Shown in pieces: positions 7,724 through 33,400 of a DNA stretch of 64,000 nt (positions within the stretch are counted from its first letter, which is position 1; every line of letters begins with the position of its first letter). The translations under genes and the position numbers were made by a program. Under the pieces are notes generated by a model, which was given only the letters and a program-made list of their open reading frames with translations, made no database searches and was not told the DNA's origin. Source of the stretch: Lasiosphaeria ovina (lineage: Eukaryota > Ascomycota > Sordariomycetes > Sordariales > Lasiosphaeriaceae); contig JAULSN010000001.1 in NCBI GenBank assembly GCA_033439765.1, positions 7,502,001 to 7,566,000 on the forward strand, written 5' to 3'.

Positions 7724-8469
7724 TAATTAATACACACACGTTCACGGCGAGATCCGCACGGGCGTTGTTGACGATGTCGCAAGATTTGGGCTCGAGGTTG
7801 TGCGCAAAACTGGCTGCGGGGCTGGCTGAAGAAGGCTGCTTTTGCAGCGGCACCAATTGGTATAATACAAAGCAATCAAATGCGGTGGGTGGTCGGTGAG
7901 AATTGGATGAAGATGATCGCAAGCTGAAGTGTTGGGGTCCATATCTTCGATGATTTGGTTTGAGACGCGTCGCCGACACGCGCCAGCCGGGATGTGGTGT
8001 CAAGCAGGCCGGGCGCCACAAGGCGCTCCGAACGGTGTGTTCAGTGCCCTGGAAATATAGCGCCTGGACATTCCGTGTTTGGTTCCAAAACGCGGGAGCA
8101 CGTGCTCATTCCGTGAGTGGATACCTGATGTATGTACAAGTACTGTACAAATCCTCCTCCTTAGGTAACCTTTAGAGTGTGTAACGCCCTGACGCAGGGT
8201 CCAGCATGTGCCTTGCATACGCAGTTCATGTCTGTGACTTGACATCGAGCACGCGACCTCGAAAGGCGACTAGAATTCTCCCACCTACATGCCCTCGTGG
8301 GATTCCGTATGTATTGTATGTACAATACACACCTTACATTCAGGCTAAGTAGGCCTCTCGGTCCTAGCGAACAATCCTTCATTCCCCAATGGAACCTGCC
8401 CAGCCAAGCAAACAATACCAACATTGGCTCGAACCGAGGATCGGGAACGTTTATGCTGCGGTGTCTGCA
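7724..8469. other. Intergenic, promoter side of 663-aa gene
   Basis: This is the upstream region of the minus-strand 663-aa gene. I see no open frame with coding character. A TGTACAAGTACTGTACA-like palindromic stretch lies near 8132-8150. Confidence 0.5.
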
Positions 8470-11782: not shown

Positions 11783-12969
11783 TTACTGGATGCCCAGAGC
11801 TGTGTCCAACGTACTGTCGTGACGTGCAGTCGGTTCCATCATCGCAATGTGCCGCTCTGGTGTCCAGTCTGATCCGAAAATCTTATGAATATCCGACTTC
11901 CCCAAAATAAATATAACGCCAGCTTTGTCAGGGGAGCCGGGGAGGACCAAGAAATCGACAAGAACAGGGGGGTCTCGAGAAGGCCTTTGGTGACCGAACC
12001 ACATGTAGATGCAGGATTCGCCGATGGGGTTGAAGACGCCACCTTGAGGGTTCAGGGGCCTCACTGTCTTTCTCCTCGCGGGCTCGAAGCCGAAATGCTT
12101 AAGCGTGTCCTCCCACATAATCGAGAAATCATGGCGTAGTGAGAAAAACACGTTGTCGAGAGTGACGATGTGGTTGTAATTGGCAAGAAAGCTCGCATGT
12201 GTGACCACTTCCTTTTCGGGATTAATGATCGAAGTGACGCGCGGGTCTGCCTGCTTGTTCTGTCGCTTCAAAGACGCCGGCGCGGGCTCCTGCGGAGGAG
12301 AGAGCATGGTGTAATCACCCCAGGACTCGTCCCAGGGCTCGCCCGTCATATCCATGAGATCGCTAAACTCGCCAAAGAACTGCTGGTCATGAATGGGGTT
12401 GTCAAGCAAGCCGCCCTGTCCCGCCATAGCAGCAAGTTGTTGGTTCATAGACATGTCGTCTGCGGGATTGTCGGCTGCTTGTATGGTTAGCAAGGGTGTT
12501 GCTGTGGTGAATGGTTGTGCGAGGGCGAGAAGAGGACAAGGCCGACGTCGACCTGTCCAGGACAGGTCAAAGGGTATGTGGTTGGGAGCTCACTGGTATA
12601 AGAAGGGAACAGGGTTGCCGCGTCAGATGGCGAAAAAACATCAATGTGTTGAACCGCTTGCTGAATTACACGGTCCTCCTTGGCTTCGTCACGAGGAAGT
12701 ATCTGGACGAAATCGTTGCCGGTTCGATCTGGTCCTTTGGCGTTCTTCGGTCGACCACGGCGGCGCTTGGACTGCAAAGAATCCGACGAGCTGTCCAGGG
12801 AGCGGCGCCTCTTCTTAACAGAGGCTTGTTTGTAAATATTGTTCTCCGGCAGGGGTGCCGAGCTGTCTTGCTGGCTGTTGGTTGTCGGTGATGCAAAAGC
12901 CGGATTAGGAAAATCGGGAAGGAGGCCGTAGGGAGGGTGGTTCCTTTGTATTTCTCTGGATGGCTCCAT
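11783..12969 (-). CDS. Family A1: AT-hook plus degenerate retropepsin-like protein, 355 aa
   Basis: Model: complement(join(11783..12474, 12594..12969)). The intron has donor GTGAGC, branch GCTAAC and acceptor AAGCAG, phase 1; an acceptor 3 nt earlier also works. Residues 54-79 are basic with an AT-hook-like core RGRP (71-74), suggesting DNA binding in the nucleus. Residues about 150-190 are acidic (GEFSDLMDM, EPWDESWGDY). Residues about 226-326 resemble a retropepsin half: LDN at 231-233 where proteases have DTG, a mid-domain Pro/Gly loop (PLNPQGG), and FILGKSDI at 314-321 matching the ILG strand. With the Thr and Gly of the triad gone it is probably not a protease. It is divergent from B1. 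Fold assignment is by motif reading only. Confidence 0.65.
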
Positions 12970-15138
12970 GGTTCAAGAAGGTAGACGGCATCAACACTTG
13001 TAATATGCTTTTGTTTAAAGGGGGTAGGGCAAAGTTCCACGATGCAGAGAAACGAGGCGTGGCTTGGGGACCTCTGGGGGAAGAGAGGTAATTGTACCCT
13101 GAAATGCCATCTCGAATTTCAAATGAGACCAAGGAAGCCCATCGCCGCGGTTATGGGTTATGGCAATGCTTTTTGAAGGTGGTGGGAGGTGGTGCAGCGA
13201 AACGCGGCGATACCCTTGACTTAAGCAAGGTCCAAGGTGTGTAAGTGGGGAGCTAAGAGACAGGACAAAGTAGGATGTAGTGCAGTACGTACGGCAGTAC
13301 TAATACGGATGCAAGGTCCACACGTAGGTTCAAGCTGCTGCGGCACTGCACCAAGAGGAACCTCCCTTGAGGGTACGGTACCTCCCACCCGCTCTCCCAC
13401 GGTTTTGTTGTATGAGAGACGGGACGGGACTGGTCAGGAGCCGGATGGATCCCGGAGGACAAGGTTAAGGGATGCGAGGAGAAAAAAACAGCACCCTGGT
13501 CTGGCAACGACTGCGCGCCTTTACTGGAGCGTGACTTCGTCTCGGTCGGGAAATTTCAAACGGCATTTCAAGGTCGGACGCCAGAGGTAGGGGGAGCAGG
13601 CACTACCTGGGAAAGGCGAAAGGCGGAGGGGGGCGGTTGCGGTTCGGGTTCGGATGTGCTAGCTGCTGTCCGCACATTTGTGGCAGTCCAGAGTATGCCG
13701 TTGGCTGCTATTCGCTACCCAGTGCCCAGGCTTCAAACTTGTGAGCATCGATTTTTAGAGCTCCGGCCCATGCAAATTGGACAAGCCAGCAACGGCACGC
13801 GCACCAGATGCCATACCCACTGCAGAGCGCCGAGACCTGTCGCCGCTGCTAACACGATCCCGCGTCATGGTGCAAACCGATGTATGGAGTTGGCGCGCTA
13901 TTGCGAGAATGCTCGGATTTTTTTTTTTTGGTGGTCGGGTCCAAGACAGCTGATGCGTGGCCAGCAGCGAGGCGAGTGGCCGACAACTCGTGGCAAGTAG
14001 CCCTACCTATTGGCTCGGCCGAAGGCCTATCAGGAATCGGGCATCGTGCCAATCGCCAGGGGTCGTGACGGCATCTCGGATGTGGCTGAGTCGTTGCCTC
14101 ATCGTGAGGACCGAGCTGAGGACTGAGGCCGAACTCCTGTAGGAGTGCCTGGAACCTTGGGCAGACAAAAAAAGGGAAATTAGGAATGTTGGGAGACGGG
14201 CAACTTTTTTTGGGCTGTGTTGAAGAAGGCAAAAAAGTTGGGGGGATGCGGAGAGAAAAGGGAAACAAAGCCCTCATACAATATGGAATCGCCGCAGCCT
14301 TCTCAGGATCACTCGCGGGGACTGCCTTCGCCGCCAAGATATCCCCCCGAACCTGATTGGACAGAAACCTGACAGAAGGCCAAAAAGAGCAAAGTGCAAG
14401 CTCGTCAACAATGGCAATGGGAGCTCCTTCCTCCTCCACTTACAACAAGAGCCACCAACTGCAACAGTTACGATTACCCTCTAGCCTGGTCGGTGCGGCG
14501 AATTTTTGTTCGGTGAAGGTTAATGCAGGGCTACTAGGTTGAAGTCGCCCTTCCGCCTGCGGTGCCAAACTGTGACCGAAGAACGCACGACGCCCCGTTG
14601 CCCGGCCACAACCCGCAGCCTACTGCGGCTTGTAACCACTATCCGCGACAGGATGACCTTTGCTAGCCGTAGGCAAGCGCAGAGGACTACTTGACCGAGC
14701 TTCACCTTTACTCAGAACGATCATATGAAGGACTCGAGCAGCGATTTGTAAGGCTGACGACCTGAGCCGGGCCGCATCTGTTTGGTCAAAAATAGCAATG
14801 TAAATATTGGTGATGGTAAACCTTCAATTGCCGATGTCGCTGCCTATCTCATCTACGTAGTTGGCTCGTATGGGTTGAAAGCTGGGTTCTAAAAACAGCA
14901 AAAGATAGAGCCTCGTCCAAGATGGCTTGATCTTTTGACTTCAACGGTGGATATAAACCTTTCATGTTGCCAACGTTCTTGTCACAATCTATCTCCTTTA
15001 AACTCACACACTGCTAATCGGTTCATTACAAGTCAATACATTGCTACCAACTTGCTACCAGCTCACAAAGCTCGGAACATTCGTTAGGTAGTTTTTTATA
15101 CCAGACTCAGCAGCCTTTATATTGGTTTATCCTGGAAG
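12970..15138. other. Shared 5' region between divergent A1 and B1
   Basis: 2.2 kb between divergent genes, presumably holding both promoters. Open frames inside show no domain and no convincing splice links. A T run lies near 13918-13929. Confidence 0.5.
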
Positions 15139-15898
15139 ATGGATCCTGATCGCACCTCCATGTTAGATAGCACAGATGGTACGCCCATCGTCATTAAGCG
15201 TGAAGGATCACCAGATGGATTCTTAATGCGGGATGGGGTAAGTTCCACTTAACCTTCCAAACTCATATATCTCGAGACAATGTTCACTTGGGGTTTGCTG
15301 ACACGAAAGCAAGACTCCCAGCGCCAAAGTCCCAGCTCACACGACAATCTGGGTGTCGTCTATATCGGTTCCCGGGACGTCAGTACACATCAACCGCGTC
15401 CCCAACTGTCCGGTCCCTGCGTCCCAGGACAAGGCCAACAACTACAGACACAAAGTGCCAGACCATATGCGGGGAAGCGGGCCCGACACGCACTACATCT
15501 CGCTCGCGACTCTACGCTCTCTGATGCACGACATGAGCGGCGAGGGCTGGTTCAATTCGGGCAAGATTAGGTTTGTGGTTATCGAGTGGCACCTCAACGG
15601 CCAGAGCCAGCCGCCCGCCTTCAAGACGCGGCACACGGTGGTTGCCGCCGCCGATGTCGACGTTGACATGTTCGGCGGCGGCGGTTTGGTCTCCTTCGCC
15701 CAGGGCCTGGACTGGGCGTGGAAGCTTGTCGAGCACGTGAACGGGTTCAACCGGGTCCAGGAGGAGGCCGCGATCGCTGCTGCCAAGCAGGAGCTGGAGG
15801 ACGCCGCGGAGCGCAAGAGGCAGCAGCTGGTGCATATACAGAATGCCTGCTGCGCACTGATGGATCTGGCTAAGGGCCCTTGCGGCCGGCCGGCGATG

Positions 15899-15932
<34 letters not shown>

Positions 15933-16375
15933 CCGCCAATAACAAGAACAAGAACAACAACAGCAGCAGCAACAACACTAATAATGGTAATTATAATGTC
16001 CATACGTTTGCCCAGCAGCGTGCCGCTCGGCGGCAGCAGGCGGCGCTGCGTAGACGTGGGGGAGTCGCACGCCGGTGTGGCGGCGGCGGCGACGGCTGGT
16101 ACGAGCGACAGGAAGAAAAGGAGCGGCGGGCCATGGCGTACTCGCAGCGGCTCGTCGAGTTGTTCCGCGGGCAGGCCGAAGAGGAGTTCGCGGCCACTGG
16201 AGACACGAGCAAGCTCCTGCAGGCCAGAAGCATGTCGCAGATGGTGGCGACCCTTGAGTCTCGCCAGCAGCAGCGCGGGGGACGGAGGACTAATGGTACT
16301 GCTGCTGCTTCTGCGTCTGCGTCTGCTTCTGCTTCTGCTTCTGCTTCTCCATCTCGAGGCTGCCGTCAGCAATGA
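15139..16375 (+). CDS. Family B1: unrecognised protein with poly-Asn linker, 386 aa
   Basis: Model: join(15139..15237, 15314..16375). The 76-nt intron has donor GTAAGT, branch GCTGAC and acceptor GCAAG, phase 0. After a 33-residue leader comes a beta-rich domain (about 35-178; KIRFVVIEWHL, KTRHTVVAAADVDVD, FGGGGLVSFAQGLDWAWKL). Next are a charged helix (about 180-210), a poly-Asn/Ser/Gln linker (about 228-275) and a C-terminal helical motif, AEEEFAATGDTSKLLQA (about 321-337). B2 shares both the N-terminal domain (TTKHLLTLEGAAISFQGGF) and the C-terminal motif (AEELYRRSGNTQGLLDV), and has an intron at a matching place, which argues for common descent. I do not recognise the family and no enzyme motif is visible. 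Confidence 0.65.
15899..15931 (+). repeat. (AAC)n repeat encoding poly-Asn
   Basis: Eleven AAC units in the B1 linker, followed by imperfect AAC/AGC repeats to about 15985. The tract is expected to vary in length. Confidence 0.9.
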
Positions 16376-17242
16376 CACATGGCGGGCAAGGATGAGCTAG
16401 CCCCGGGATGCCATAACACCTCCGCCCGAATCTCTGTCTCGTAATCTCTCTCTCTATTGTTGACTTTTTTTTTCAAATTATAAGGAGGGGAAAAAAATTA
16501 CATATGTTCGTGTTATTGAAAGAAAATTGCTAGTTGGCGTAGATTGCAACCCTAACCCTCTCAGTCCGTGTAAGTGGCCGCCCGAAGTTCGGACATTGCA
16601 GATCGTAGGTGAGCAACAACCAAAGCACGCCGACGACACCGAGGGCGCGAATATTGACAGATGGAGCATCATTTCAAGGAAGGTACTTGCATTGTAAGAC
16701 TTGCTCGAAATGAATCATGACATCTTCTCCATTGATATGTTCTCACTGTACACTGATTATGGACAACTGTTTAGTGAGGACGAACGCCAGTCAGGATGTG
16801 ACGTCATCGCTAGTCTGACCATGTCACAACTCAACTGATACTCCAGAAAGCCTTCCGGGACCTGAAAATGACCAGCCCAATATGAACAATCTTTTTATAG
16901 TAACAGGAGTGGGCGCTCAATACAGCTTCATGTTGCCCACAGTTATTGGGGCGCAGAGGAAGGGTGAAGCGGCCCGGCTGGCAAAAAGAAAAACAGGAAT
17001 AAATACAACAGAAGAGTTACACCCCAAGTACCCGAGTCTCAAGGTAGGTTTGCGACACAGCAGAAGGCATCGACTGAGCGCAGTTCTAGCGTCACAGCTA
17101 GCCCTCGTCGTGCAACAAAGAAATCCATTGCTCATAGGGTACAGACTCCATTACACATGTGGCTACCCGTCAACCCCCTACCCATACCATTGTCCGAAAT
17201 TGACTTTGGCTACGAGTTAGCTCACATGCACCACGTTGCGGC
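16376..17242. other. Convergent 3' region between B1 and A2
   Basis: No gene seen. A short CCCTAA doublet at 16548-16559 resembles the telomere unit but is too short to mean much. Confidence 0.5.
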
Positions 17243-18322
17243 TTATTCTTGAATTGATGACGTACCAAAATACCCATCGTCCCAATCTGGTATCCCATTA
17301 TCATTATAATTATCCACGGGCATGTTGGCTACGTGGCCGGCATAACCGCCGCCGGGCCAAAGACCTGGATTGCCCTCGGCTTGTGGAGGGGGCACGACTG
17401 GTGGAACGTATTGCGACACGATTGCGGTGCTCTGATTGCTTGCAGAGATAACCAATGGCTCGTCGTATGGTGTCTCGGCAAGGGGCCACTGGTCGCCAAA
17501 AAAGAAGTCGATAAAAGGCTTTCCCAAAATCAGGGGCACCCCCAAGCTGACATCATCATCGTCCAGGATGGGAATCCGACAAAGCTTGAGAGGTACCTGC
17601 AGTTGCGGGACAGTAAAGTATAGAAACACGGCCCGGGTGGTCCTGATACGACCTAGCGGCGTCACAAAAGTTTGGATGTCGTCTCCGGATAACTCGTATG
17701 GATGCCAGCCCAAGACCTCGGCAGTCCTTGCCGGTATAAATAATCGAGGGAAGCGCGGAGAAATAATAGTGTTCGGTAGCTTCACAAAGTCACCGCCTGG
17801 TGTCATTATCTCGATATCCACTGCTAGTTCGTCATAGGCAAGATTATTGATATCAAATGGAGGAGGCACCCGGACTCTCCGTGATGGGCGGCCTCGTTGC
17901 ACAGACATCGTAGCGGATGTGGAGGCCTCGACAGACTTCGAAGTGTCTAAGTTGGCTTGTGCTGCTGATGAGACGCTTGGGGTAATTATGTTGTTGGGTT
18001 GTGGTTGCTCGTCCAGGTTCTCGGAAACAGGGTGCGAATCGACACGACAAAATTCCAGGCTTGAGTTTGCTTCGGGTCTCGGAGCGATTATGACTGGGCT
18101 TTCTGGCGGGTTACTACAGAGAAAGGTCAGCATCTTTTGCAGAAATCCAAAGGACGACGGAGTTGGCAACTGCGCTGTGTGTGTAAATACGCAAAGATGC
18201 GTCAACACTTACATTCGAGGTCTGTTGGGCGGCCGTCCGATGCGGTTTCCCCTCCCCCCTTTCCCTCCTGTCCTTCTCCTCGTCTTTACCGATCGGCCTT
18301 TTTCCCGTCGCTGCTTGTGCAT
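17243..18322 (-). CDS. Family A2: basic N-terminus plus degenerate retropepsin-like protein, 326 aa
   Basis: Model: complement(join(17243..18113, 18213..18322)). The 99-nt intron has donor GTAAGT, branch GCTGAC and acceptor CTGTAG, phase 2. The first exon encodes an Arg/Lys/Gly-rich stretch with a GRP core (about 29-31), and a second AT-hook-like core, RGRP, is at 110-113. The retropepsin-like domain spans about 130-245: FPRLFIPARTAEVLGW, then VTPLGRI (187-193), then an acidic turn DDDD and PLILGKPFIDFF (230-241). The DTG triad is absent. A simpler start at ATG 18133, inside the predicted intron, would give 296 aa, so the N-terminus is uncertain. A2 is divergent from B2. A regulatory or DNA-associated role is inferred from the basic motifs. 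Confidence 0.62.
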
Positions 18323-19797
18323 TCGGTACCACCACCAGTGCCCTATTGTGTTGTGTTGGGTCGGAGCTATACGGTGCTGTAGCTCGGCCTATATGCCGAC
18401 GTTTGGAGTCGGGAGGGAAGAAGAACTGTTCGGGGAGCTTGGGGTGGCAGCATCGTATTTTCTCTAGTTCTGTGTCTGGCGTGCCGGTCGTGCCGTACAA
18501 GCTCGCGGGATTCTTTGGTGGTTTAGGCGGTTTAGGCGTTGAAGGAAAACCGCAGGCGTCTGAGGCTGTGTCAAAGGTACGACCTAACGCGTAATCACGA
18601 GCACAAGCAGGCGTGGCCGGTAAATCGATTTGCAGACCCCCTCGTAGCCCCCCCAAGACTGGCGAGCAGGCGAAATTCGCTGGCGCGCAGAAAACGCGAA
18701 CTGTCGAGTTATCCCCAACGAGCTGGCAGAGAGACGTTTTTCACTCAACGTTTAAAAGCAAATAGATGACCTAGCTCGCTGGGCCGAGGATGCCAAACGT
18801 CGAGGCAGGCAAAATACAGGTGATTTGGCTATCTACTAGGAGATCGAAGGGAGCGAGCTCTTTTGATTCAAATGGGGTTTGTCCATGCGAATGCGAACCA
18901 TTGCCTTCCCCTAAGGTGGGAGAAGACAGGGGGTTTGAAGCCCAGGCCACTAGAAGGCGTCCAAACTTGACGGGTTCGCATCTCGTCGGTCAAGAATCTG
19001 TGTTTGGCTCCACGTCTGCCAGGTCACCTAACAACATCGTTTCTTGCTCGTCACATGTCTTCCCAACGTCGTGTGTCCTGGCAGGTCCTGGCGGGTCCAG
19101 GTGGCAGGTCTGGCTAAGCCGACAGAAGGAAAGGGGAAGATGGAAATGCAGGCCGCGTGGATAAAAGGCGCTCCCTCTCGCTCCCCTCGCGGGCGGGCTA
19201 TTGGTCAAAACTACGAAACCTTGCTTGAGCTGATGCAAGCTGTGAGGGCGCAGCCACGGCGCAAAAGTTAGGGTTGGGTCACACCTTCCCTCCCATGTGC
19301 CTCCCTCTGGGGACGGACCTTTGCTGAGGAGTCTCAGCTGAGGCCCCAAGGGGAAGGGGTAGCGTCAGCACCCCGCACTTGGCGGCCAAAGTCCTGAGAG
19401 CTGATTGCACGACTCGCCTAGGCGGCTTGCAGCATGCACCAAGAATTTACAAATGCCGAATCGGGAAGGCCCCAAGAGCAAGAAAATATCGACAGATCCA
19501 ACTCCTTCCGTGCCTCGAAATAAGAAGTGTCGAAATGATACGCTAGCTATTTCAGTTTGTCGCATTTACCGCAAGGCGCACGCAGCCTTGTCTCGTCGTC
19601 ACTCCGATCTTCCAGGCTGTGGGGGTGGCCTCTGGCTGAGACAGCTTTGGCTTTCTTTCATTCAAGACTTGCTAATATGCCCTTGGTCTTCGGGACCTTC
19701 CCTGGACCTACCTTCATCATTCTTTTTCCACCGATGAGACTATGTTATCACTTGAGACTTCTAAACTTGGACCTGCCTCTTGTAACACGACGACGCG
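18323..19797. other. Shared 5' region between divergent A2 and B2
   Basis: 1.5 kb presumably carrying both promoters. A minus-strand frame at about 18223-18560 reads Pro/Lys-rich but does not splice in phase to A2, so I left it out. Confidence 0.5.
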
Positions 19798-20814
19798 ATG
19801 CCTCGTAGTGCGTCGTTCAAGGCCGCCTCCAAAGCTGTTGGAAATGTCTCCAACACGGTAAGCTTTCACCCCCTTCCAGACCTCCCTCAGAGGGACCTCT
19901 CACTAAGCAAAATACAGCTCGGAGAAGCGGCCATAGTCATAACGGTCCAGAAGCTCTCCACGTATCCCGACGGGACAGGAACCGGCGGCGTCTTGGCCGG
20001 TCCCATGGAGAGCGACGTGAATGCGTCGAGCCATCGCCCGGATGGCATCCATACCATTGATGTCCATCTTGTGTCGCTACTCAGCGGCTATGACAAGAAA
20101 TCCCTTTACCCCTGGGCCAGAACTGGGAACTTCTTCATCGAAGCTGTCTGGGGCTTCCCGGGCCATAGCTACCCGGTCTGGACGACAAAACACCTTCTAA
20201 CGCTAGAAGGAGCGGCCATCAGCTTTCAGGGCGGGTTTGGATCCTTCACCAGATTGTTCGACCACGTCAAAGGTTTCCAGACCTCATCGGCTGCATCTTC
20301 CATCCCGAGAGCTCCATCCCGGCCAAGGTCGTATTTTCCCACTTACCAGGGCTCTCAGAAACTCCCTTTGCGAGACGCCGTCTACTCCGGGGACCTACGA
20401 CAAGCCAACGAGTGGAGCTGGCTTGAACCACGGCCTGAAAGCTACCGCTCTCTGAATTACGAGCCGTTGGACTCTCCACCTCCCATGTCCCCAACACCAA
20501 CGGACGACGACTCCTCGTGCTACAGCGAGTCTGTCTCCACGCCATTTGCGGATCTAGATGAGGACTATCTCAGCCCAGTCCCTTCTCGTTACTCGAATTC
20601 GAGACATACGTTTACCGGACCCAAATATTCCAGCGATGTTTGGACGGACCAGCAAGCCCAACAGCAGCTTCATGCTGAAACTCTGGAGCGGCAGAGGAAA
20701 GACGCCGAAGAGCTTTACCGGCGCAGTGGTAACACCCAAGGACTCTTGGACGTTGTGAACTCAGCTGCCCAATTCCGTGGAGCTTTTCACCCATCTGGAA
20801 TGCCGCTGTTTTAG
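19798..20814 (+). CDS. Family B2: unrecognised protein, 318 aa spliced
   Basis: Model: join(19798..19857, 19918..20814). The 60-nt intron (donor GTAAGC, branch CACTAAG, acceptor TACAG) is a multiple of three with no stop, so retention would give 338 aa. The N-terminal domain (GIHTIDVHLVSLLSGYD, GNFFIEAVWGF, TTKHLLTLEGAAISFQGGF, FDHVKGF) aligns in order with B1. The middle is Ser/Pro/Tyr-rich and disordered with an acidic patch (DDDSSCYSES). The C-terminus has ERQRKDAEELYRRSGNTQGL, the motif shared with B1 and B3. Convergent with A3, divergent from A2. Function unknown. Confidence 0.68.
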   Translation: MPRSASFKAASKAVGNVSNTVSFHPLPDLPQRDLSLSKIQLGEAAIVITVQKLSTYPDGTGTGGVLAGPMESDVNASSHRPDGIHTIDVHLVSLLSGYDKKSLYPWARTGNFFIEAVWGFPGHSYPVWTTKHLLTLEGAAISFQGGFGSFTRLFDHVKGFQTSSAASSIPRAPSRPRSYFPTYQGSQKLPLRDAVYSGDLRQANEWSWLEPRPESYRSLNYEPLDSPPPMSPTPTDDDSSCYSESVSTPFADLDEDYLSPVPSRYSNSRHTFTGPKYSSDVWTDQQAQQQLHAETLERQRKDAEELYRRSGNTQGLLDVVNSAAQFRGAFHPSGMPLF

Positions 20815-22653
20815 ACTGGTGCAAGCCGCATGTAACTGACGTCAACCGTCGTATCCTCTCAACTAGATTGGAAACACCCCCTTTTCCCGACCCACTATTG
20901 GCTTTCGGCCCCCTTTTGACAAGGACATGAGGTATAGTTTCTTTTGTCCCCTTTTCCCTTGTTTGTCTATGTATTATTTCTGGTTCGCATGTCGGTGATC
21001 GTTTCCGTTGGGGTTTTTTGGTACATGTTTGTGCGCAGGAAGGGACTCGCAGGGAGCATGTCGGAGAATAATATGTCGGAACTGCATGTATTCAGGTGAG
21101 CGCGAGTCTGTCGTCGAGTTTGCTTTTGTGAGCGACCCTGCTAGAGGAGTTTCATGTATAAAACAGTTTGGGGCGAGAGGAAATGTGTGCGCTGGAATAC
21201 ATGTATATTTTTAATAGGAGAGAGATGAAGCCGGGGATATGCCTCTCATGATTTCTATTTGCATCACGCCTTTTTCTTGCCCCTTTCGTAGGAAACTGGT
21301 AAACCGATCGAGGTTGTATCGCGCAAAGAGTGTATCAAGCTAGTTTTGATGGGCCAGTCCCTGGCGACCTACTACCGCGACAAGAGAAAAGAGATGGAGG
21401 GCTTGAGACAGGAAGAATCACCTTCTCCAAACCAGAATGTCGAGAGCGCTGACTTCTCCGAGCAGCGCAGGAGAAGTCGGGGCAGGTGAGGACAGAGTCG
21501 GAGAGAAGCATGGTGTTCGGATTATTGGCTAGGCAGGCAAGCTTATGACTCGGATCCCGGTGAGTCAGGCAGTTCTTGGAGAACAAAAGGGTAATTAATT
21601 ACTCCGTATTAGACAGAGCAGCAATAGCATCAGGACAACAGGAACAAAAGCAAAAGATGGTTCTTGCCCGCTACATTTATTTTCTTCCTTCCCTCTTCCC
21701 AAAATATATGAAACCAACCAACCTTCAAACAAAAATGAGGGGAGATAAGGAGAAACAAGGGCCTTTCCCAGAAAAGAGGGCACAAATGGAAACACTGCCA
21801 CTTTAGACCGCCCAATCATGTGCTGGCCAACCACGCGGCATGACGAGGATGTGAATGCCGGCAACCAGTCAACGATCCAATTATGATTTCCAATTCGGAA
21901 ATCCATTCATTCTTGTTGGTCTGGTCCACGTCAGCCGCTTGCGGGGAACCTATGCCTCTCTACCTGACTGGCGGCCTGATGTGCCATGCCATGTGAGCAT
22001 TGGTAGCGTGATTCCAGCCAATACTGGAGATATTGCCAGTTCGGGAGTCAAACTGACTCGACCGCCCAAGTGTGCGAAAATCGAACAAGGTGATTAAATT
22101 CAAGTAGGTAGGTGTATATTCCCATCACTGACTCATTGCCGAGTTTTAGGGCGTGAAGGTGGCTATTTCTATTCAAAAGGGGGAAAGAAACGGGGGCAAA
22201 TTGAAGGAATGGAGAGGAAAAGGTAAGAGAATAGAAGCCCATCGCAGAGAGTTTGTCCAAAGTAGACAAAGAAGATAAGGAAACCACATCCTGGCACTCT
22301 ACCCGCCCTTTACGTAGATCCCCATCTAATTCTAAAAAAATTTAAAAAAAACCGAAGTTGGAGGTTGTATAAAAGAGAACGCAGTCCTTGCGCATCTTGC
22401 CAGCTCGCTTTTCCGTCCTCCATCGACGACTAAAAAGAGGAAACCATCGTTGCAAGTTTCTGACCACGCGATTGCCTTGCAAGAGCTTGCTCGACATTGG
22501 CGCCGGGGAAATTATTCCTCCACGTTTTCGAGGACATTCCACATCGTACTGATATTGAAACGTCTGGAAGTTGCATCACCCCCGGCGCGATCAGACGAGG
22601 CGTCGTTGGTGAATTCAAGGGCCTGGAGATTTGATCCCAAGTTCGTCCGTATT
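20815..22653. other. Convergent 3' region between B2 and A3
   Basis: No gene supported. Frames are short on both strands and AT content is raised in the first part. Confidence 0.5.
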
Positions 22654-24049
22654 CTAGGAAAACTCGAAGTGATTCCAAGGGTCGCCCATTTCCGGGTCCG
22701 GGTTGACTGAGGAATGCGTGGCCGGGTAAGTGGATCCTTCTGGAGGTATAGCAGAACCAGTGTTGCTGCTCTGGCTGTTGAAGCTTGGATGAAAGATCTG
22801 GGCCTGTCGATCAGGGGGAGGGTGGGCTTGTTCCAGTGGGGCCCAATCAGTATGGCTTGTCCTGTTGTCTGTGACCCGTTAGCGTTCAAGCAAGACAAAC
22901 TGATCCCCACATTCGCGGGCTAGGCCGCTCCTGTTCAGCCGCAAATCGATACATCCCAACGTCGACTAAGCGAGCAACCCAAAAAGCACGTCGAGTTCAT
23001 ATTCTCAGGGGTGTCAGAGGCAATGGAAAACATTGCTTACCCCAGTTGTCCGAGAAGGACAGTCCCTCTGATGACCCAGACGCTCCCGGGGGCGCCTGAA
23101 TGTGCGGTGCGTTGGCCCAGCTGAAAGTTGCGCTCTTCCCCGGACCTTGTGAACTTGTGGCATTGCTTCCAACGTATAGCGGCTTCTGGGGCACGGCGTT
23201 GCCATCGAAAACGGATGTTACTGGCAAGTTTTCTTCGAAATCCGGATTCATTTCCAAGAACGGCTGGCCGAAATAGATGTCGATGTCCTCATACGGGAAG
23301 TCGTCATCCAAAACGTGAACTGTGTTCATCTTGGGCTCGACACCAAATCGCCGTTGTTTGACGATGAGCTCGGCATATCGCCGCAGGTTGATTCGGCCGA
23401 GAGGGGAGACAAGAAGCTGTATCGTTTTGCCGGGAGGAAGCTCGATCGGCTTAATATCCAGCCACGGGAGGCCTCTCGGGTGCACCACCGTGACGGGAAG
23501 ACGTTGGACGCAGACAGACTGAAAGGCATGATCCTCCCCATTCATACCTCTGAGGATGACTGGCGTGGCCCGGCCATATTTATCATTGTATTTCAGTCTT
23601 GATCTCCGGTAATCCCGCCTTATCTGCTTCCTCTCGGCCCAAGAATGATGCCGGACCTCCACTTGCGACGTAGAGCTCCCAGCCCGAGGTTGATTTCCGG
23701 AATGCATCCTGAAGCCTATGCTGGGGGCTATCTGCTCGTCCCATGCATTTGACAGAGAACCAGAGATGCTGGCATACGACTGATCTCCTCGTTGTCGTGG
23801 CGAGACCAACTGCGGGGCTGGGCCACTTGGAAGCATCGATCCGGATCCGGGACACAGACTCCGATTATTCTGTGGGCGTACCAGTCCCCCGACGTTGGGG
23901 TTGCCTAGCCACGGCTGGTTACCCTGTTGGTTACCCCGAGGTCTCGTCGGGTAGGGCGCGGTCCGGACTGGGGGGCGTAGAGTTGAGGGATTCGGCCGAT
24001 GTGTCCGGCGATCGTTCGATGCTTCCGATGGCGGCGAGAAATCAGACAT
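22654..24049 (-). CDS. Family A3: degenerate retropepsin-like protein, 407 aa
   Basis: Model: complement(join(22654..22868, 23041..24049)). The 172-nt intron has donor GTAAGC, branch GCTAAC and acceptor TCACAG, phase 1. The last exon was chosen by phase and gives a Gln/Pro/Ser-rich tail ending PWNHFEFS. Residues 1-130 are Pro/Ser/Gly-rich; 138-160 are basic (ERKQIRRDYRRSRLK). The retropepsin-like region is about 170-268: VQRLPVTVVHPRGLPWLDIK in place of the catalytic loop, LLVSPLGRI (212-220), VHVLDDD (245-250, acidic turn as in A2) and IYFGQPFLEM (258-267) for the ILG strand. No DTG, so catalysis is unlikely. A2 and A3 are the closest pair by eye. Divergent from B3. Confidence 0.65.
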
Positions 24050-26518
24050 GGCCAGCAGCGAGTCGGTCAATAACACCTGGATAAACCTTCACAAAACCTT
24101 GGGTCGCTCGCTCGCTTTTCTGGTGTTGTTTGACTGACCAAGCCTTCAGCTCGAAGCTCACCGCCAGCGAGAGGGATTATGTGCTCAAAAAAGGTAGAGC
24201 GCGGATCGACCGAAATACTAAAAAGAAGCAGGAGATTGTCTTCTTTGGCGGGGGCAGTTTCTTAAAAGCGAAACTCGCGGGAGTAGGTTTGAGTGTTTGT
24301 CGATGGATGGTGTGGGATGGATGGGCTGCCTTCGTGGTTGGCAGTGCTGGTTTGACATCTGGAGCAGAAGCTTGTAAGTGCCGCTGCCGTGGAAAGACTC
24401 CTGTTGGACAACCCCCAAGGTTATTTGTTTTTTTCACAGACAGGGATGTTGGTTGTGCACCAGCATGCCAAAATCCATCATATGGTAACCAAACTATGAT
24501 CGGGGGAGAAGAAATCCAAAAGGCAGTTCTTAGGTACCTTAGTTCTTTCTGTCAACGGGATAAGTGGATTGCATCGGCTTTTGAAGGAATGGCCTACGCG
24601 GTCCAGCTCAGGCTCTCCGTTAGGTTAAATATCCAATTGCCTTTCAACAGCGGCGGATTAGCTCGCAAACCAGCAAAGTAGGTGTCTCATTACCTTCCTA
24701 CCTTCTTGTGTTGACCGAACTCAGGCAACTCCTTCGCCTGCTCACGAACAACCGCCCGGAGGTTGCTCACAGAGGCCGTCTCGGTACATACCGACACGAC
24801 TCACCCCAAGCCACCTTGTCGCGGCAGTTAACAGTTCAACGGCGAGAAAGAGGCGACCACGGTATCTGTCGGAACCAAAGCCGGCTTTCCCCCCAGCCTC
24901 AGACCTTGACCGGCGAAGACTGAGCCCGCCTGGGCCGTCACGGGGATATTACAAAGCGCAGAACCACCTAGCGACACAGCCCTCATAGCATCTTCTGGGG
25001 TACCGCCCCTGGGTAAGTTGAGGGTGTAGGAAAATGTAGCGCACTTCCACCACCGGCCAAACATTTCTGGAAAGAAGGCGCGAGTAGGGTGTTTCGGCTC
25101 GATCTTCCGGAGTTGCTAATGGAAGCTAAGGTAGGAAGGAACTGCCCGGTAGGGAAGAAGGCGAACGATCTAACCTGCAGCCACCTCCGCGGGCAGTTGG
25201 GAAAATGTCAGTGAGGTCCTGTCGGCTGTTTGCCAGCGCCAGCTTCAACACCCTAAGGCGCCAGGCCCATCTAGGTGATTTGGCATTTCGCCAGGCTGGA
25301 AGACCAGGCTCAGTTTGAACCGGAAGCTACCGTAGGTACCTTAGGTACCTTCCTACTAGTACCTTGAACTTGTGCGGCTGCTCTTGCTGCTTCCGTGGGC
25401 TGTTCTTACCGGAATTGGCTCATCTGAGTTGGTTGCGACTGCCGTGTCTTTCCGTCCCCTCTTCTCCAACCTCCCTCTCAGCTCGGCCAGCTTCTCCACT
25501 CCAGCTCCTTTTAGCGGCCGAGAGCTCCCTCACCTTGCAGCCTTGACGTGTCCCATTTCAAGTCTAACTTTGATGGTTTACCGACGCAATCTGTTCGAAC
25601 ACGGCCTCTTCCGCCCGGCTGCTGAGCGTCTGCAGCTGGTGATGCGACCCCGCGGCCTACCCATCGCTCGATCGAGTTAAGGCTCGCGGCGCTGCCAATT
25701 TGAAGCCACAGCCTGCTCTTTCAGACGCCGCCAGACCACACGCCCAAGGAACATGATCGCACCCACACACAACGGCTTCGCGCGCGCCATCTTTGTGGGT
25801 TTCATAATCAAGGCCTCTCAATTGGTCGCCTGGGCCTTGCCAAACCATGGAACATCGAAGAAGAGACGAGGGTGGCTCAGCAGGCCTATTGTGCCCTCAC
25901 CCGCTCGTTTAGAACCGGCTTCTAGATCTTTGTCTTGATGCTCCGGTGTGTTTTTCCCTCGAAGCCCGTTAAACCTGGTGATGAATTCGTCTTTAAGTTG
26001 GCTGGGTTCCTTTTCGCCCCTTTTTCTCTTTCAATTGCTTCGTGCCAGAACCCATAAGGTCTCTCTCTCGTTCCAATCATTAGCTGCCAATCCTTTGGTG
26101 CAGTCAAGTACTCGAGCACACGATTGTCAATTAAGCTTGGTTTCGGGTAATACATCTGCTGGACCTGAGCTGAACTCGGCCATTGGGACTTTTTTTCTTG
26201 TTTTTGGCGGCGAGGAGCTGCGAGCGGCTGATGTAACCGTAAGCCGCCTCATTCAGCTCTTCTCAGCGCCTCTTCAAGCTTGGTACTCGGCAGCCTCTTC
26301 ATCTAGGGCCCTCCATTTCCCCCTTTCTCTGCTGCCGAATTGGCAGCCGTCGATGCCCTTTATGCCCAAACACAACGTTTTCAACCCAACCGACAATTCC
26401 TACAATTCCGCTGGGAATTAGGGCAAGCAAGAACACCCCATTGGCCAGGCTCAGTACCGGTCGAGTCAGCATCCAACACGGAACAACCGGAAGACCTGAC
26501 AAACAACAACAAAAGCCA
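24050..26518. other. Shared 5' region between divergent A3 and B3
   Basis: 2.5 kb with no clear gene. Palindromic AGGTACCT units cluster at about 25331-25350 and recur near 24530. A 5' exon of B3 may hide near 26340-26420, but I could not connect it by splice signals. Confidence 0.45.
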
Positions 26519-27205
26519 ATGCTTGGACGGGGGCAAGACGCAGGGCGCGGGGGCGATGCAGAAATGGCTACAAACTCAGTCGCCGGAACAGACGGTGGTT
26601 CCGGATCCGGCAAACAACAACAGAAACTAAAGCAAGTCATACAAAACAGTGGCAAGAAATCTCAAAATAATGATTTTGCACAGAAATGGCAAAGGGGGGG
26701 GAGCTTGAGGCCCGTGCAGGCCAATATTGTGGACTTGGGCGGCGTTACCATGGCCACGAGAGCAAAAAGGGGGGCTCCAAACTCGGCAGATGGATCAGGC
26801 AGCACAAAGTCTGGGACACACAAAACCCCACAGTCACATTGTACCACTGATCTCGACGCAGTGACTGGCGAGAGCGCCAGCGACATTATTGGGTCGGACT
26901 GGACATTTGTGAGCGTGCCGGAGCTCCGGAGCTCCGCGGCCGACGGCAGCTCGTCGGATGCCGTGTTGCTCAGGCGGAGGATCTTCAGCGAGCGGGAGCA
27001 CCGGGCCAGAGCAAGGGCCAATCGCGAGTATCAAATGACGGGCGACGTGAATGTCTTCCGCCACTTCTTGGCCCCCTTTGTACGGAGCGACAAGACCAAA
27101 GAGCTCGGCCCCTGGGAGTGGAGCGAGGCCGTGGAGCGGTGGTTCCGCGTTGAGAAGTCGAGTGGCTCGATTATTTGGGCGCCGCTTCCCGAGTCGTTTA
27201 TCTGA
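26519..27205 (+). CDS. Family B3: short B-type protein, 228 aa, 5' end uncertain
   Basis: The frame is open from about 26441; the first ATG is at 26519 and the stop ends at 27205. The N-terminal half is Gln/Asn/Gly-rich and disordered (KQQQKLKQVIQNSGKK). Residues 151-188 (RRRIFSEREHRARARANREY, then QMTGDVNVFRHFLAPF) match the shared motif of B1 and B2: a charged helix, an aromatic residue, (S/T)G(D/N), then a short helix. The beta-rich N-terminal domain of B1/B2 is not seen, so B3 is either a truncated copy or has unfound upstream exons. It ends in WFRVEKSSGSIIWAPLPESF. Divergent from A3. Function unknown. Confidence 0.5.
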   Translation: MLGRGQDAGRGGDAEMATNSVAGTDGGSGSGKQQQKLKQVIQNSGKKSQNNDFAQKWQRGGSLRPVQANIVDLGGVTMATRAKRGAPNSADGSGSTKSGTHKTPQSHCTTDLDAVTGESASDIIGSDWTFVSVPELRSSAADGSSSDAVLLRRRIFSEREHRARARANREYQMTGDVNVFRHFLAPFVRSDKTKELGPWEWSEAVERWFRVEKSSGSIIWAPLPESFI

Positions 27206-27693
27206 GACGAGTTGCGGTGTATTTCGCAAGTCGGTTGTAACAGGTGGTTGGACAAGAAAATGGTGTGTACTTGTGTAAGATGAATGTCTCTCAGCCGTTG
27301 TTTGTCTTTTGTTAGTGCTATCCTTAATGGTCCGAAAAATGCTTGTTCCCGATATACCTCTTATTACGCTCTTCACTCAATGAAGTACAGTATATTTTAC
27401 TATGAAACTATTAGGTAGAGAAGCTGACCCAACAACGAAAACTCCCTACAACGAAATTGGCCCACACCATGCCAACAACGACCCAGTGAGCGCTGATCAA
27501 ATACCCAATCCTCTTCCTCGGCTTGTCTGTAGTGCTGAAATCCTCGGACGGGCATTTACCGGGTTTCGGCCGCCTTGTGCTGTGGCAGTCTCTATTCTCT
27601 TTGGAAGCTTATGCACTAGCCACGAGTACCTTGGGAACGGTGCGACAAACATAGTCGACAAAAAGGCCGACATAAAGAATGGAAGAGAATAAG
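27206..27693. other. 3' flank of B3, no gene seen
   Basis: Short spacer with no coding signal. Confidence 0.5.
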
Positions 27694-27880
27694 GCTAAAT
27701 ATCTTTTCGTCGGCGCACAGATCGCGCACCGGACCTTGTGCTTGCGTGTGTTGTGAATCGTGTCTCCGTGGCGCGTGAGATCGTATAGCCTGGAAAAGAT
27801 GGTGTTGTAGGGCTTTCCCGTGCTTGGGTTGATGCGACCACACTTGTGCGGTCCCGCCTGGCTGTTCAGGAGGCTGGATG
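27694..27880 (-). pseudogene. C2H2 zinc-finger relic
   Basis: The minus strand reads HKCGRINPSTGKPYNTIF, then SRLYDLTRH, then TIHNTRKHKVRCAIC. From memory, a common Pezizomycotina C2H2 family has a Cys where this copy has Tyr in GKPYN, so the first finger is broken. At KVRC the frame then appears to slip by 2 nt: the adjacent frame continues DLCADEKIFS, as the second finger of that family would. No further zinc-binding residues follow. The losses (TGC to TAC, Pro to Leu) are transition mutations of the kind RIP produces. It is a decayed fragment, not a gene. Confidence 0.5.
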
Positions 27881-27950
27881 CCATGCCTGGATTCGAACCG
27901 GCGCTCTCGGGTCTGCGAGCCCCGTGGATTCCTTGAGCCTGTCGATGTCC
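27881..27950 (-). pseudogene. tRNA-like fragment (3' half)
   Basis: The minus strand has a perfect B-box-like GGTTCGAATCC (27889-27899). It is preceded by an anticodon-arm-like hairpin at 27908-27924 (CGGGG, loop CTCGCAG, ACCCG) with T before and A after a CGC triplet. The T stem has two mismatches, the D arm is unclear and no matching acceptor stem is found, so this is at best a decayed tRNA or tRNA-derived element. Confidence 0.3.
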
Positions 27951-29199
27951 CTCCCTCTTGTGCTTCGGAAGAGAAGCCCACAGCTACCTAGATACACAAA
28001 GGCTGGTTTTAGAACGAAACAGCAAATGGCAATTAACAGACAACGCACCAGCTATGACATGTTTCCAAGCACCAAGGTGCCCTTCACCAAAACAGGCGGA
28101 GGCTCATGAATTGCAACAGAACCCAGAGACGCAAATAGAAGTACAAGTTATAAGCGAGAAGAAACGCAAATTCGTATTTCAATTTCAATTTCAGCTAGAA
28201 ACTAGAATTATACATGACAGAGTTCGTCTCCTGGCCCAAATGTCCAGCCTCTGCTGGCTACCAAGCAGCCTTCCAGGAATGCGCCGATAAACAATGGCGA
28301 CGACGGCAAAGAACTCCCCGACGCCATTCGTTTCGGTCAAACGACCACTATCATACTATGCAGCCTTTGGCAAAAACAAGAAAGAAAAGGAGGCCGCTTG
28401 ACCTCGCAAGTCATTTCCGCGGCTCTGTGAGTTTATAAATTCTGCTCAGCCTATCAGCTGAGGCCGCCCTCCCCCTTTCCAAAGCAAACTAGATACCTGA
28501 CAAGAGAAAAAAGCTAAAATTGCTCAACGAAGCGCAACCCCCCAAACTCCGCATGACCATGGCGTCGTGGTGTGAAATATGTATGGTACATGTATGCCAG
28601 TGCAGATCACAGAAGGAAAAAAAAACCCTGTCCCATTGTAGGAATTACCGATCAATCAGAGTTGCTGAGGCTGATGCGGCTTGGCGGACCGCATAACCCT
28701 GATTGGTCAGTCAGGAAGAATAGTGGGCCCGGTCCGGACATACAGGTCATCCGCCCTAGCACGTGACCTCAGTACGCACAGGCCATTCACCCTGGCGCGT
28801 GACCGTGGGCAGCCCACTCCCCCAAATCACCAGCACCCTGTAACCTTAGTTGATAGACAACATGTAGATAAATGAACACAACCACCTACCCCCAACCTTA
28901 CGCTACAGTTACTATAGTGACTATTGCGAATGACCTTGTCATTCCAACACCCATTCCAATATCCCCGCCGCAGGATGCTTGTCCAAGCAAGGCAAGATAT
29001 AAAAAGGGGCAAGTCAAGTCCCCCAATAAACAACACTATATATATGAAAGTGAGAGAGACAGGAAGTAGAAGCAACAGCCTGCTATGCTACCGTCACGGC
29101 TATGATGCTGTACAAATGAGAGTCCAGACTCCCTCTAAGTTTTCCTTACCTCGTTCAGCGCCACTCGGTAGCACTCTTCTCCGTCCTAGCAAGAGTCAC
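27951..29199. other. Intergenic, 3' side of A4
   Basis: AT-rich in parts. No gene seen. Confidence 0.5.
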
Positions 29200-30471
29200 T
29201 CACAGCTGCTCGCGCAAGAAGCTGAGTGAAGGGTCATCCGAAGTATTTAATGCGTCAGACATGGATGGATAGTCTAACACTAGAGATTGAGGGCGACTTT
29301 CTATCATACACATATCGTCCGGCCAAGAGCCGTCAACTGTGCCGCCGACATGATCGCTGGTTTGTGAGGACAGCGCCGTCAAATTCATCGAGAGCGTGTA
29401 GTTTGGGGCTGATACGGATGTCCAGCCGGTGCTCCCGCTCTGGTTGCTTTGTGTACCGAGAAAGGGGTCATGCCCTGGTCGTTGGCTTGGCGCCGAGAGA
29501 AAATGTTGACTTCTCTGAGGTGCTTGTTGAGTGGCAGAGCGATGTATTGGGGACCCTCTCGGCTCCAAGTTCCGGCTTCCAACAGGAGGTGTATGCTGGA
29601 AAACCATCATGTGCTCTGGCTGCGTCCGGTTCATCATTTCGAGACTGGGAATAAGCGGCGGAGGAGCCGGTCCGAAGGTGCTTTGACTGGGAGCTTGGGC
29701 TGCCTTCTCCCAAATTTTTTTCCCAAGTATCAACACGTAGGCAGTAGGAAATTGCCAGTCGACAGCTTGCAAGTGAAGGGCATAGTTCGTCAAGCCCAGC
29801 GCTGAGATATCACAGATGATGGTCGCCCAGTATGTTGGTTCTTTATAGCCGACCGGAGTCAGAATTGCCAGTTTCCTTGCTTGCGGAATGGGCTGCAAAT
29901 CCAAGCGGAGCCCCCTCGCGATGGACTCATTGATGAGGGCATAGTCATAGCCTGTGTCAAGAAAGGCTATTGCATTCATGCGGTTTACCGTGACGCTCAA
30001 TAGCTCGTGCAGGGTGTTGATGGGACCTGGCCTGGACTGAAGACCGTTCGGGGCCGTTTGCGATAAGGGTCTAACCGCCGAAACGTGTAGAGGCCTCGCT
30101 GGGTTGAAGGCAGCGTAGTCTATCCGCTGATCATGAGGGTTCGGAATCACCCGTGGCAACGGATGCGACGGCGGGGAGTTGTGAGTATTGAAACCAGGCC
30201 TTTGGACAGGATAGGGGGATGACAGCTGGGATGCCGGGGTGGAATGGAAGCTTGACCCTTGGGTATAGCTTGGTCCTTGGTCACCAGGCGGTCTCTCTGG
30301 TGTGATGTGTGAAGCTGGGAGGGTGGGATGCAATGTGGTGTTCTGAGACGTAGTGTTCTGAGGCGGATAGAAAATCGGATCCGAGAACGTTGATTGCAAT
30401 TGGCTCGAGTGAGCAGTCCTCGCAGATTGGCTAGTCTGATCTCGGCAGCTCAGCCCAGACATTCTCTGCAT
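29200..30471 (-). CDS. Family A4: retropepsin-like protein with intact DTG, 423 aa
   Basis: A single frame; ATG at 30471 is the first, with an alternative at 30462. Residues 1-150 are Ser/Pro/Gln-rich and disordered. The retropepsin-like domain is about 155-260. It has AIAFLDTGYDYALI (167-180) with the catalytic-type Asp-Thr-Gly at 172-174, a helix SIARGLRLDL, LAILTPVGYK (201-210), and AYVLILGKKIW (244-254), which is the classic ILG strand before the C-terminal helix. Retropepsin-fold enzymes work as dimers with one DTG per chain, so this copy could be active. The remaining 160 residues are Ser/Thr/Gln-rich, ending SLSFLREQL. The start lies inside the 3' end of the next gene (41-nt overlap, same strand, different frame), which is unusual in fungi. 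Confidence 0.65.
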   Translation of the reverse strand: MQRMSGLSCRDQTSQSARTAHSSQLQSTFSDPIFYPPQNTTSQNTTLHPTLPASHITPERPPGDQGPSYTQGSSFHSTPASQLSSPYPVQRPGFNTHNSPPSHPLPRVIPNPHDQRIDYAAFNPARPLHVSAVRPLSQTAPNGLQSRPGPINTLHELLSVTVNRMNAIAFLDTGYDYALINESIARGLRLDLQPIPQARKLAILTPVGYKEPTYWATIICDISALGLTNYALHLQAVDWQFPTAYVLILGKKIWEKAAQAPSQSTFGPAPPPLIPSLEMMNRTQPEHMMVFQHTPPVGSRNLEPRGSPIHRSATQQAPQRSQHFLSAPSQRPGHDPFLGTQSNQSGSTGWTSVSAPNYTLSMNLTALSSQTSDHVGGTVDGSWPDDMCMIESRPQSLVLDYPSMSDALNTSDDPSLSFLREQL

Positions 30472-33268: not shown

Positions 33269-33386
33269 GTATGCCGATTCTCATTTAACAGCTGTCCGCT
33301 TTGTCGAATCGCAACGCATCCCATTGCCCCATCGCTCGTAGCGCAGTCGTGCGAAAGCCGGAAACTGACTCGGTTTCAATTTTCAG
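33269..33386 (+). other. Predicted 5'-UTR intron of pab1
   Basis: Donor GTATGC at 33269 and acceptor TTTCAG ending at 33386, 14 bases before the ATG. The upstream sequence has no in-frame ATG-led continuity needed for coding, so the intron is placed in the leader. Confidence 0.55.
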
Positions 33387-33400
33387 TACAAGAGAGCATC

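What the first reader, a model, noticed from the sequence alone, without database searches (positions are those of the whole stretch)
11783..30471. Array of alternating divergent gene pairs from two uncharacterised families (A and B)
Genes run A1(-) B1(+) A2(-) B2(+) A3(-) B3(+) A4(-) over 19 kb. Each A shares the mid-domain Pro-x-Gly element and ILG-type strand; each B shares a charged helix ending in (S/T)G(D/N) plus a short helix. Three consecutive divergent A/B pairs of diverged paralogues suggest that a two-gene unit was duplicated and kept together, as seen for partner or toxin/immunity-like or allorecognition modules. I do not know this pair from any described system.
Basis: partly seen in the sequence, partly recalled or inferred. 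Interest (0 to 1): 0.92.

Follow-up and report, generated by a model that had tools for sequence, protein, structure and literature searches.

The report
Fungal array of dead-protease-like genes
A fungus carries a 19-kb row of fast-changing genes in which proteins that look like retired relatives of retrovirus-type proteases alternate with a second, unknown protein family; it probably grew by old tandem duplications, and what it does is not known.

Summary
The window is contig C1 of Lasiosphaeria ovina (Sordariales). The seven genes and their alternating strands are as described. Family A is probably real: A4 matches retropepsin-like (retroviral-type aspartic protease) profiles beyond 200 of 200 shuffles; A1 and A2 do so once A4-like sequences are in the profile; A3 is a clear paralogue of A2. 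The catalytic Asp-Thr-Gly is present only in A4 (Asp-Ile-Gly in the sister species); A1-A3 and an A4 relative on another contig lack it. Family B holds for B1 and B2; B3 shares only a short C-terminal motif. The closest pairs, A2/A3 and B1/B2, fit duplication of a convergent B-A unit better than the proposed divergent A-B unit. No DNA similarity is left, so the duplications are old. Three searches of 5.8 billion proteins (A2, A4 domain, B1+B2) found only L. ovina and L. miniovina entries. No allorecognition domain was reported in A or B, so the partner/allorecognition reading is open but unsupported. Best reading: an old, genus-level tandem array of pseudo-retropepsin proteins plus an unknown family. 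Direct A-to-A profile comparisons remain weak.

The parts
11783..12969 (-). A1: two-exon gene (intron 12593-12478, predicted), 356 aa; AT-hook-like RRRGRPKN near residue 72; retropepsin-like stretch about residues 238-320 with SLR in place of DTG, NPIG and FILG elements
   Evidence: match to the combined retropepsin-like profile p 0.004, 0 of 200 shuffles; to the retropepsin-only profile p 0.18, 26 of 200
15139..16375 (+). B1: two-exon gene (intron 15238-15313), 386 aa; N-terminal conserved domain, poly-Asn linker, C-terminal helix with ATGD
   Evidence: orthologue P0004 in L. miniovina, 80% identical, has the same N-terminus across the splice
17178..18322 (-). A2 = B0T24DRAFT_77500, 327 aa; introns 18212-18114 and 17265-17204; basic N-terminus with two GRP AT-hook-like motifs
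17444..17866 (-). A2 retropepsin-like domain, SPR in place of DTG; TPLG and LILG elements kept
19798..20814 (+). B2 = B0T24DRAFT_674046, 318 aa, intron 19858-19917
   Evidence: homologous to B1 (E 1e-4; 1 of 300 shuffles)
22886..24049 (-). A3, 362 aa if the predicted 3' intron 23040-22966 is spliced; paralogue of A2, HPR in place of DTG
   Evidence: E 1e-8; 0 of 300 shuffles
23189..23641 (-). A3 domain aligned with the A2 domain
26519..27205 (+). B3, single ORF, 228 aa from the ATG; shares only the C-terminal A...[FY]..TG(D/N) motif with B1/B2
29200..30420 (-). A4: part of the 449-aa ORF 29200-30549 that is homologous to L. miniovina P0002; true start not known
29680..30048 (-). A4 retropepsin-like domain with LDTG, TPVG and LILG; DIG in L. 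miniovina
16175..16204 (+). B1 C-terminal helix-TGD motif
20704..20733 (+). B2 C-terminal helix-SGN motif
27017..27046 (+). B3 C-terminal helix-TGD motif

Best explanation
This is an old tandem array of fast-evolving, probably intracellular proteins, found so far only in Lasiosphaeria. Family A are proteins built round a retropepsin-like domain whose catalytic Asp-Thr/Ser-Gly is missing in A1, A2 and A3 and differs between species in A4 (DTG in L. ovina, DIG in L. miniovina): pseudo-proteases. Family B is a separate family (B1, B2, perhaps B3) without known relatives. The array most likely grew by old tandem duplication of a convergent B-A unit (B1-A2 and B2-A3 the closest copies, B3-A4 more distant, A1 left at the end). 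Shown here: gene order, A2/A3 and B1/B2 paralogy, a retropepsin-like profile match for A4 and weaker ones for A2 and A1, absence of the catalytic triplet in A1-A3, presence of A4 and B1 in a second species. Inferred: that the A domain now serves as a dimerisation or peptide-binding module (retropepsins are dimers and bind extended peptides; established knowledge), in A1 and A2 perhaps brought to chromatin by AT-hook-like motifs, and that B is a partner selected to stay next to A. The functional part is no better than about 0.2; the confidence refers to the anatomical and evolutionary part.
Confidence: 0.5

Rival explanations
1. Domesticated retrotransposon protease: the A genes descend from the protease of an LTR element and were co-opted, with B as an unrelated neighbour gene that hitch-hiked in the duplications.
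For: Best profile relatives are gag-type aspartyl proteases. Other retropepsin-like ORFs exist in this genome: 7 places match PF13975 at E 10 or better, 5 over the cut-off, among them C29:2160280-2160930 with two domains in one 417-aa ORF.
Against: Own-genome searches found no further copies beyond A2/A3 for each other and one C30 relative of A4. A2 has introns; A1 and A3 are predicted to. No reverse transcriptase or integrase was reported in the nine array ORFs scanned; long terminal repeats were not searched for. Retropepsin-like domains also occur in cellular proteins such as Ddi1, so a transposon origin is not needed.
Confidence: 0.2
2. Partner or allorecognition module: A and B proteins bind each other as matched pairs and discriminate self from non-self, kept linked so that pairs stay matched, as at het-B of Podospora, which consists of two adjacent genes, each with highly divergent alleles.
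For: Alternation of two diverged families, co-occurrence on one contig length in a second species, strong sequence divergence between copies. L. ovina has the largest NLR set (162) of 82 Sordariales genomes (passage of PMC12258605), so non-self recognition genes are abundant in this species.
Against: No HET, TIR-like, NACHT or HeLo domain reported in A or B. The two orthologue pairs seen are 80-85% alike, not hyper-divergent. The C30 relative of A4 has no detectable B beside it.
Confidence: 0.1
3. Chance neighbourhood: only two real paralogous pairs (A2/A3, B1/B2) from one segmental duplication; A1, A4 and B3 are unrelated orphan genes and the alternation is coincidence.
For: Pairwise alignment supports only those two pairs of 21. 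Direct profile comparisons of A1 and A4 with A2/A3 are weak (p 0.27 and 0.09). B3 joins B1/B2 only by a 10-residue pattern.
Against: A4 matches the retropepsin-only profile and A1 the combined one beyond 200 of 200 shuffles and all 40 other window ORFs tested. The B pattern is otherwise seen once in the window (with a stop) and not in 56 kb of six other loci.
Confidence: 0.28

Closest known systems
Retropepsin-like domains (Pfam PF13975 gag-asp_proteas, PF13650 Asp_protease_2; Ddi1; ASPRV1)
   Same: Order of elements: short N-terminal strand, D(T/S)G position followed by a hydrophobic strand and helix, a P-x-G strand in mid-domain, a final (I/L)LG strand.
   Different: Catalytic triplet missing in A1, A2, A3 and the C30 relative; scores below every curated cut-off; long flanks outside the domain, AT-hook-like motifs in A1 and A2.
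Tandem retropepsin-like ORF of the same genome (C29:2160280-2160930)
   Same: Retropepsin-like, with SPG and LVLGKPFL at the places of TPLG and LILGKPFI in A2.
   Different: Keeps DSG and DTG; two domains in one frame; no B gene detected within the 16 kb read round it. Whether it lies in a retroelement was not tested.
Clusters of lineage-specific genes in Neurospora (PMC10684091; abstract and outline seen)
   Same: Orphan genes without known domains that sit together.
   Different: Most of the Neurospora genes lie next to telomeres and cluster with HET-domain genes; this array is 7.5 Mb into a 9.16-Mb contig beside a poly(A)-binding-protein gene, and no HET domain was reported in the ORFs I scanned.
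het-B of Podospora anserina (PMC10890737; abstract and outline seen)
   Same: Two adjacent genes of different families that may act together.
   Different: het-B encodes a HET/lectin-fold protein and a PII-like protein; neither domain was reported here.

Membership tests
Retropepsin-like aspartic protease domain | Sequence or profile similarity over the one-lobe domain | tested here: met
   For A4: 0 of 200 shuffles and 0 of 40 other window ORFs reach it with the retropepsin-only profile. With the same profile A2 2 of 200, A3 9 of 200, A1 26 of 200, and 3 of 40 ORFs score better than A2. With the combined, A4-containing profile A1 and A2 0 of 200 and 0 of 40, A3 9 of 200. No curated cut-off reached
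Retropepsin-like aspartic protease domain | Three-dimensional fold | tested here: inconclusive
Active retropepsin protease | Catalytic D(T/S)G | tested here: not met
   SLR in A1, SPR in A2, HPR in A3, TCD in the C30 relative, DIG in L. miniovina A4; L. ovina A4 alone keeps DTG (placed by eye for A1 and the C30 relative)
LTR retrotransposon | Reverse transcriptase, integrase and terminal repeats round the protease | not tested
   No reverse transcriptase or integrase was reported for the nine array ORFs scanned, but terminal repeats were not searched for
Fungal allorecognition (het) genes | HET, NACHT/NB-ARC, HeLo, patatin or similar domain | tested here: not met
   None reported for the seven proteins or the orthologues in Pfam or NCBIfam
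Fungal allorecognition (het) genes | Polymorphism under balancing selection | not testable with these tools
   One genome of L. ovina held
Secreted toxin with immunity partner | Secretion signal on the toxin | tested here: inconclusive
   Highest 15-residue hydropathy in the first 44 residues is -1.51 to 1.08 over seven proteins, which speaks against a signal; but this is no signal-peptide program, and the true start of A4 is unknown
Two-gene A/B unit | A and B co-occur in other genomes | tested here: inconclusive
   L. miniovina A4 and B1 orthologues share contig length 4,565,430; adjacency itself not seen; the C30 relative of A4 lacks a detectable B

The most novel reading that the evidence does not exclude
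The array is a reservoir of matched two-protein recognition modules in which a dead retropepsin-like domain (A) binds its neighbour's B protein, with the loss of catalysis turning a protease-substrate contact into a stable, specific recognition contact that diversified by tandem duplication.
Probability: 0.08. Interest if true: 0.8.

Novelty: new variant of a known kind. Interest (0 to 1): 0.42.

Why it matters
If the assignment holds, one genome region shows retropepsin-like domains at several stages of losing catalysis while being kept and duplicated, beside a protein family with no known relatives. That would make a concrete test case for what a pseudo-protease of this fold does in a fungus, and for how fast orphan gene arrays escape homology detection: the closest copies are about 26-29% identical where they align, yet the three protein searches run found nothing outside the genus.

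Tried and rejected
Divergent A-B as the duplicated unit: rejected as the first choice, because A2/A3 and B1/B2 are the closest pairs, which a B-A unit explains with one event and an A-B unit does not.

A B gene beside the C30 relative of A4 (L018): a stretch on the opposite strand looked like the B motif by eye, but neither the B profile nor the strict motif found anything there (the output was cut, repeats the search on six loci). Dropped.

DNA-level traces of the duplication between three consecutive segments (13000-18400, 18401-24100, 24101-30420): none at E 0.01 in 3 of 3 comparisons.

A2/A3 structure: failed, pLDDT 33.6. B structure: not attempted (two jobs only). Foldseek on the A4 model: 37 matches, none at E 0.001 or better, no retropepsin among them; retropepsins appear only in the VIA second look.

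PDB sequence search with the A4 orthologue P0002 gave only two selenoneine synthase entries at E 0.3, with B2 nothing at E 1. NCBIfam: nothing at E 0.5 for 8 proteins.

Absence of A2 and B2 from L. miniovina is not claimed: the protein collection is clustered at 90% identity (P0001 stands for 3 and P0003 for 2 member sequences), and L. ovina's own B1 and A4 were not among the hits either, so coverage is patchy. A1, A3 and B3 were not searched there.

Literature: the paper searches listed no paper whose title or abstract start points to this array or to a fungal dead-retropepsin family. Only listings were seen, except abstract and outline of PMC10684091 and PMC10890737 and passages of PMC12258605. 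The library lacks most subscription journals.
Full report
Where it is. The window is G000:C1:7502001-7566000 of a 51.7-Mb genome in 32 contigs. The protein of gene A2 is B0T24DRAFT_77500 of Lasiosphaeria ovina, and that of B2 is B0T24DRAFT_674046 of the same species; both are listed on a contig of 9,163,860 bases, the length of C1. To the right lies a poly(A)-binding-protein gene at 32975-35647 (five RRM stretches and an MLLE domain). On the left the nearest long ORF that I scanned is 5732-7726, with no Pfam family over its cut-off; shorter ORFs between 8 and 11.7 kb were not examined.

The genes. My models: A1 11783-12969(-), one intron; B1 15139-16375(+), one intron; A2 17178-18322(-), two introns; B2 19798-20814(+), one intron; A3 22886-24049(-), one 3' intron; B3 26519-27205(+); A4 29200-30420(-) as the part with a known orthologue, inside an ORF that reaches 30549. 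The B2 model equals the deposited protein, and A2 does with its last acceptor at 17204/17203. B1's splice is supported by the L. miniovina protein, which has the same N-terminus and continues across the intron. A1, A3, B3 and the start of A4 rest on sequence alone. The coding frame scores highest of six frames in 7 of 7 genes, though weakly; A2 was scored on its long exon only.

Are the families real? By Smith-Waterman with 300 shuffles per pair, 2 of 21 pairs stand out: A2-A3 (z 9.5, 0 of 300) and B1-B2 (z 6.1, 1 of 300). BLASTP gives 1e-8 and 1e-4 for these, and nothing for A2-A4 or B1-B3. A2 and A3 also share a 3' intron followed by similar short ends (VNFGQWYG in the deposited A2, VDVGMYRF in the predicted A3), and B1 and B2 share a phase-0 intron just ahead of the conserved domain.

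What family A is. A4 reads FLDTGYDYALINESIARGL, then TPVG, then LILGKKIW. This is the layout of a retropepsin-like domain, and Pfam lists PF13975 and PF13650 weakly for the domain (E 0.0052 and 0.062; full-length A4 0.061 and P0002 0.3 for PF13975; all below cut-off). I took segments of own-genome hits to PF13975 (7 hits; 5 used in the profile: L020, L021, L022, L024, L025; L023 and L026 left out as short or doubtful) and compared profiles with HHalign. A4 with its orthologue: p 0.0051; with the C30 relative added 0.0011; A4 alone 0.0073; reversed A4 0.33; A2+A3 0.0049, reversed 0.66; A2 alone 0.048; A3 alone 0.063; A1 0.18; B1/B2 0.59; B3 0.38. HHalign's probabilities stay at 20% or less. Of 40 other window ORFs (stop-to-stop, 180-900 aa, clear of the array genes, not all of them genes) 3 reach 0.05, the best 0.031. 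Direct A-to-A comparisons are weak: A2+A3 with A4 0.09, or 0.021 with the C30 relative; A1 with A2+A3 0.27; A1 with A4 0.27.

With the A4 domain, P0002 and the C30 relative added to the profile: A2 0.0006, A2+A3 0.0023, A1 0.004, A3 0.09, B1/B2 0.16, B3 0.15; the best of the 40 ORFs is 0.09. Against 200 shuffles each with this profile: A1 0, A2 0, A3 9, B1 73, B2 75, B3 22 reach the observed score. With the retropepsin-only profile: A4 0, A2 2, A3 9, A1 26. So A4 is retropepsin-like on independent grounds, A2+A3 together moderately so, A1 and A2 alone only through A4-like intermediates, A3 through A2.

Catalysis. At the D(T/S)G place A1 has SLR, A2 SPR, A3 HPR, the C30 relative TCD (placed by eye for A1 and the C30 relative). 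L. ovina A4 has DTG; its L. miniovina orthologue has DIG. The domain of A4 is no more conserved between the species (82 of 97 aligned residues identical) than its N-terminal part (120 of 139) and less than its C-terminal tail (154 of 168), which does not look like a conserved enzyme.

Family B. B1 and B2 share a domain with W...(T/S)G....W...G.S.P...T.H and SF..G......L..HV.GF, then a linker and a C-terminal helix ending TGD or SGN. No Pfam or NCBIfam family over cut-off, and no PDB relative of B2. B3 lacks the domain. The pattern A...[FY]..[TS]G[DN] is found four times in the six frames of the window: B1, B2, B3 and one place with a stop; 32 of 20,000 B3 shuffles have it, and it is absent from 56 kb of six other loci. 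Because the pattern came from these proteins, B3's place in family B is possible but not shown.

Who else has them. A2 search: only itself among 1713 candidates at E 0.1. A4 domain: only L. miniovina B0T26DRAFT_407329 among 286 candidates at E 10. B1+B2 profile: B2 itself and L. miniovina B0T26DRAFT_678890, the B1 orthologue, among 7464 candidates at E 10. These searches need shared five-residue words, so distant relatives would be missed. In the own genome A1, B1, B2 and B3 find only themselves below E 0.6, A2 and A3 find themselves and each other; A4 finds a relative at C30:220741-221073, and the reverse search finds A4. Near that relative no B was detected.

How it arose. The closest copies are B1/B2 and A2/A3. 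One tandem duplication of a convergent B-A block explains both; B3-A4 would be an older copy and A1 the remaining end. No DNA similarity is left between the three segments, so this is old. Strong divergence may explain why relatives elsewhere are not seen, so the genus restriction may be partly a limit of detection.

How it may work. None of the seven has a strongly hydrophobic N-terminus (A4's true start is unknown), so they are probably intracellular. A1 and A2 have AT-hook-like GRP motifs in basic stretches (the motif is recalled, no AT-hook family was reported). The most likely role is as non-enzymatic, dimer-forming or peptide-binding proteins, some on chromatin, with B as possible partner. 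This is inference. Allorecognition is possible in a species with the largest NLR set of 82 Sordariales genomes (162; passage seen in PMC12258605), but nothing here points to it.

Noticed in passing
30426-31469 (-): A two-exon gene of a dispersed family: besides the window, 15 places in the genome match the stretch over its 3' end, and in 7 of 7 fetched copies the similarity (85.5-89.2%) starts and stops at the same base or one off, 12 nt before the ATG and 5 nt after the stop. Six of the seven share the same 16 bases on both sides, so they sit in a larger repeat; the window copy and L002 do not. No Pfam or NCBIfam hit. A gene-sized mobile cassette is possible.
   Followed up: partly
30424-30549 (-): The 5' end of the A4 ORF runs into the repeated gene; the first 40 or so residues of the L. 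miniovina orthologue have no clear counterpart in the window, so A4 may have lost its original 5' end in L. ovina.
   Followed up: partly
27609-27983 (-): ORF between B3 and A4 with a zinc-finger-like stretch (zf-Di19 E 0.03, below cut-off); resembles a fungal C2H2 protein by recollection. It breaks the strict A/B alternation.
   Followed up: no
L034 8133-9386 (-) (C29:2160133-2161386): 417-aa ORF with two retropepsin-like domains in tandem keeping DSG and DTG, after a stretch of unknown kind.
   Followed up: partly
L018 5741-6362 (+) (C30:220741-221362): Relative of A4 with TCD in place of DTG; a possible last domain strand (VLGGK) lies in another frame, perhaps after an intron (weak, E 0.46).
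   Followed up: partly
15900-15990 and 16290-16360 (+): Poly-Asn (AAC) and Ala-Ser repeats in B1 that differ in length from L. miniovina B1.
   Followed up: no
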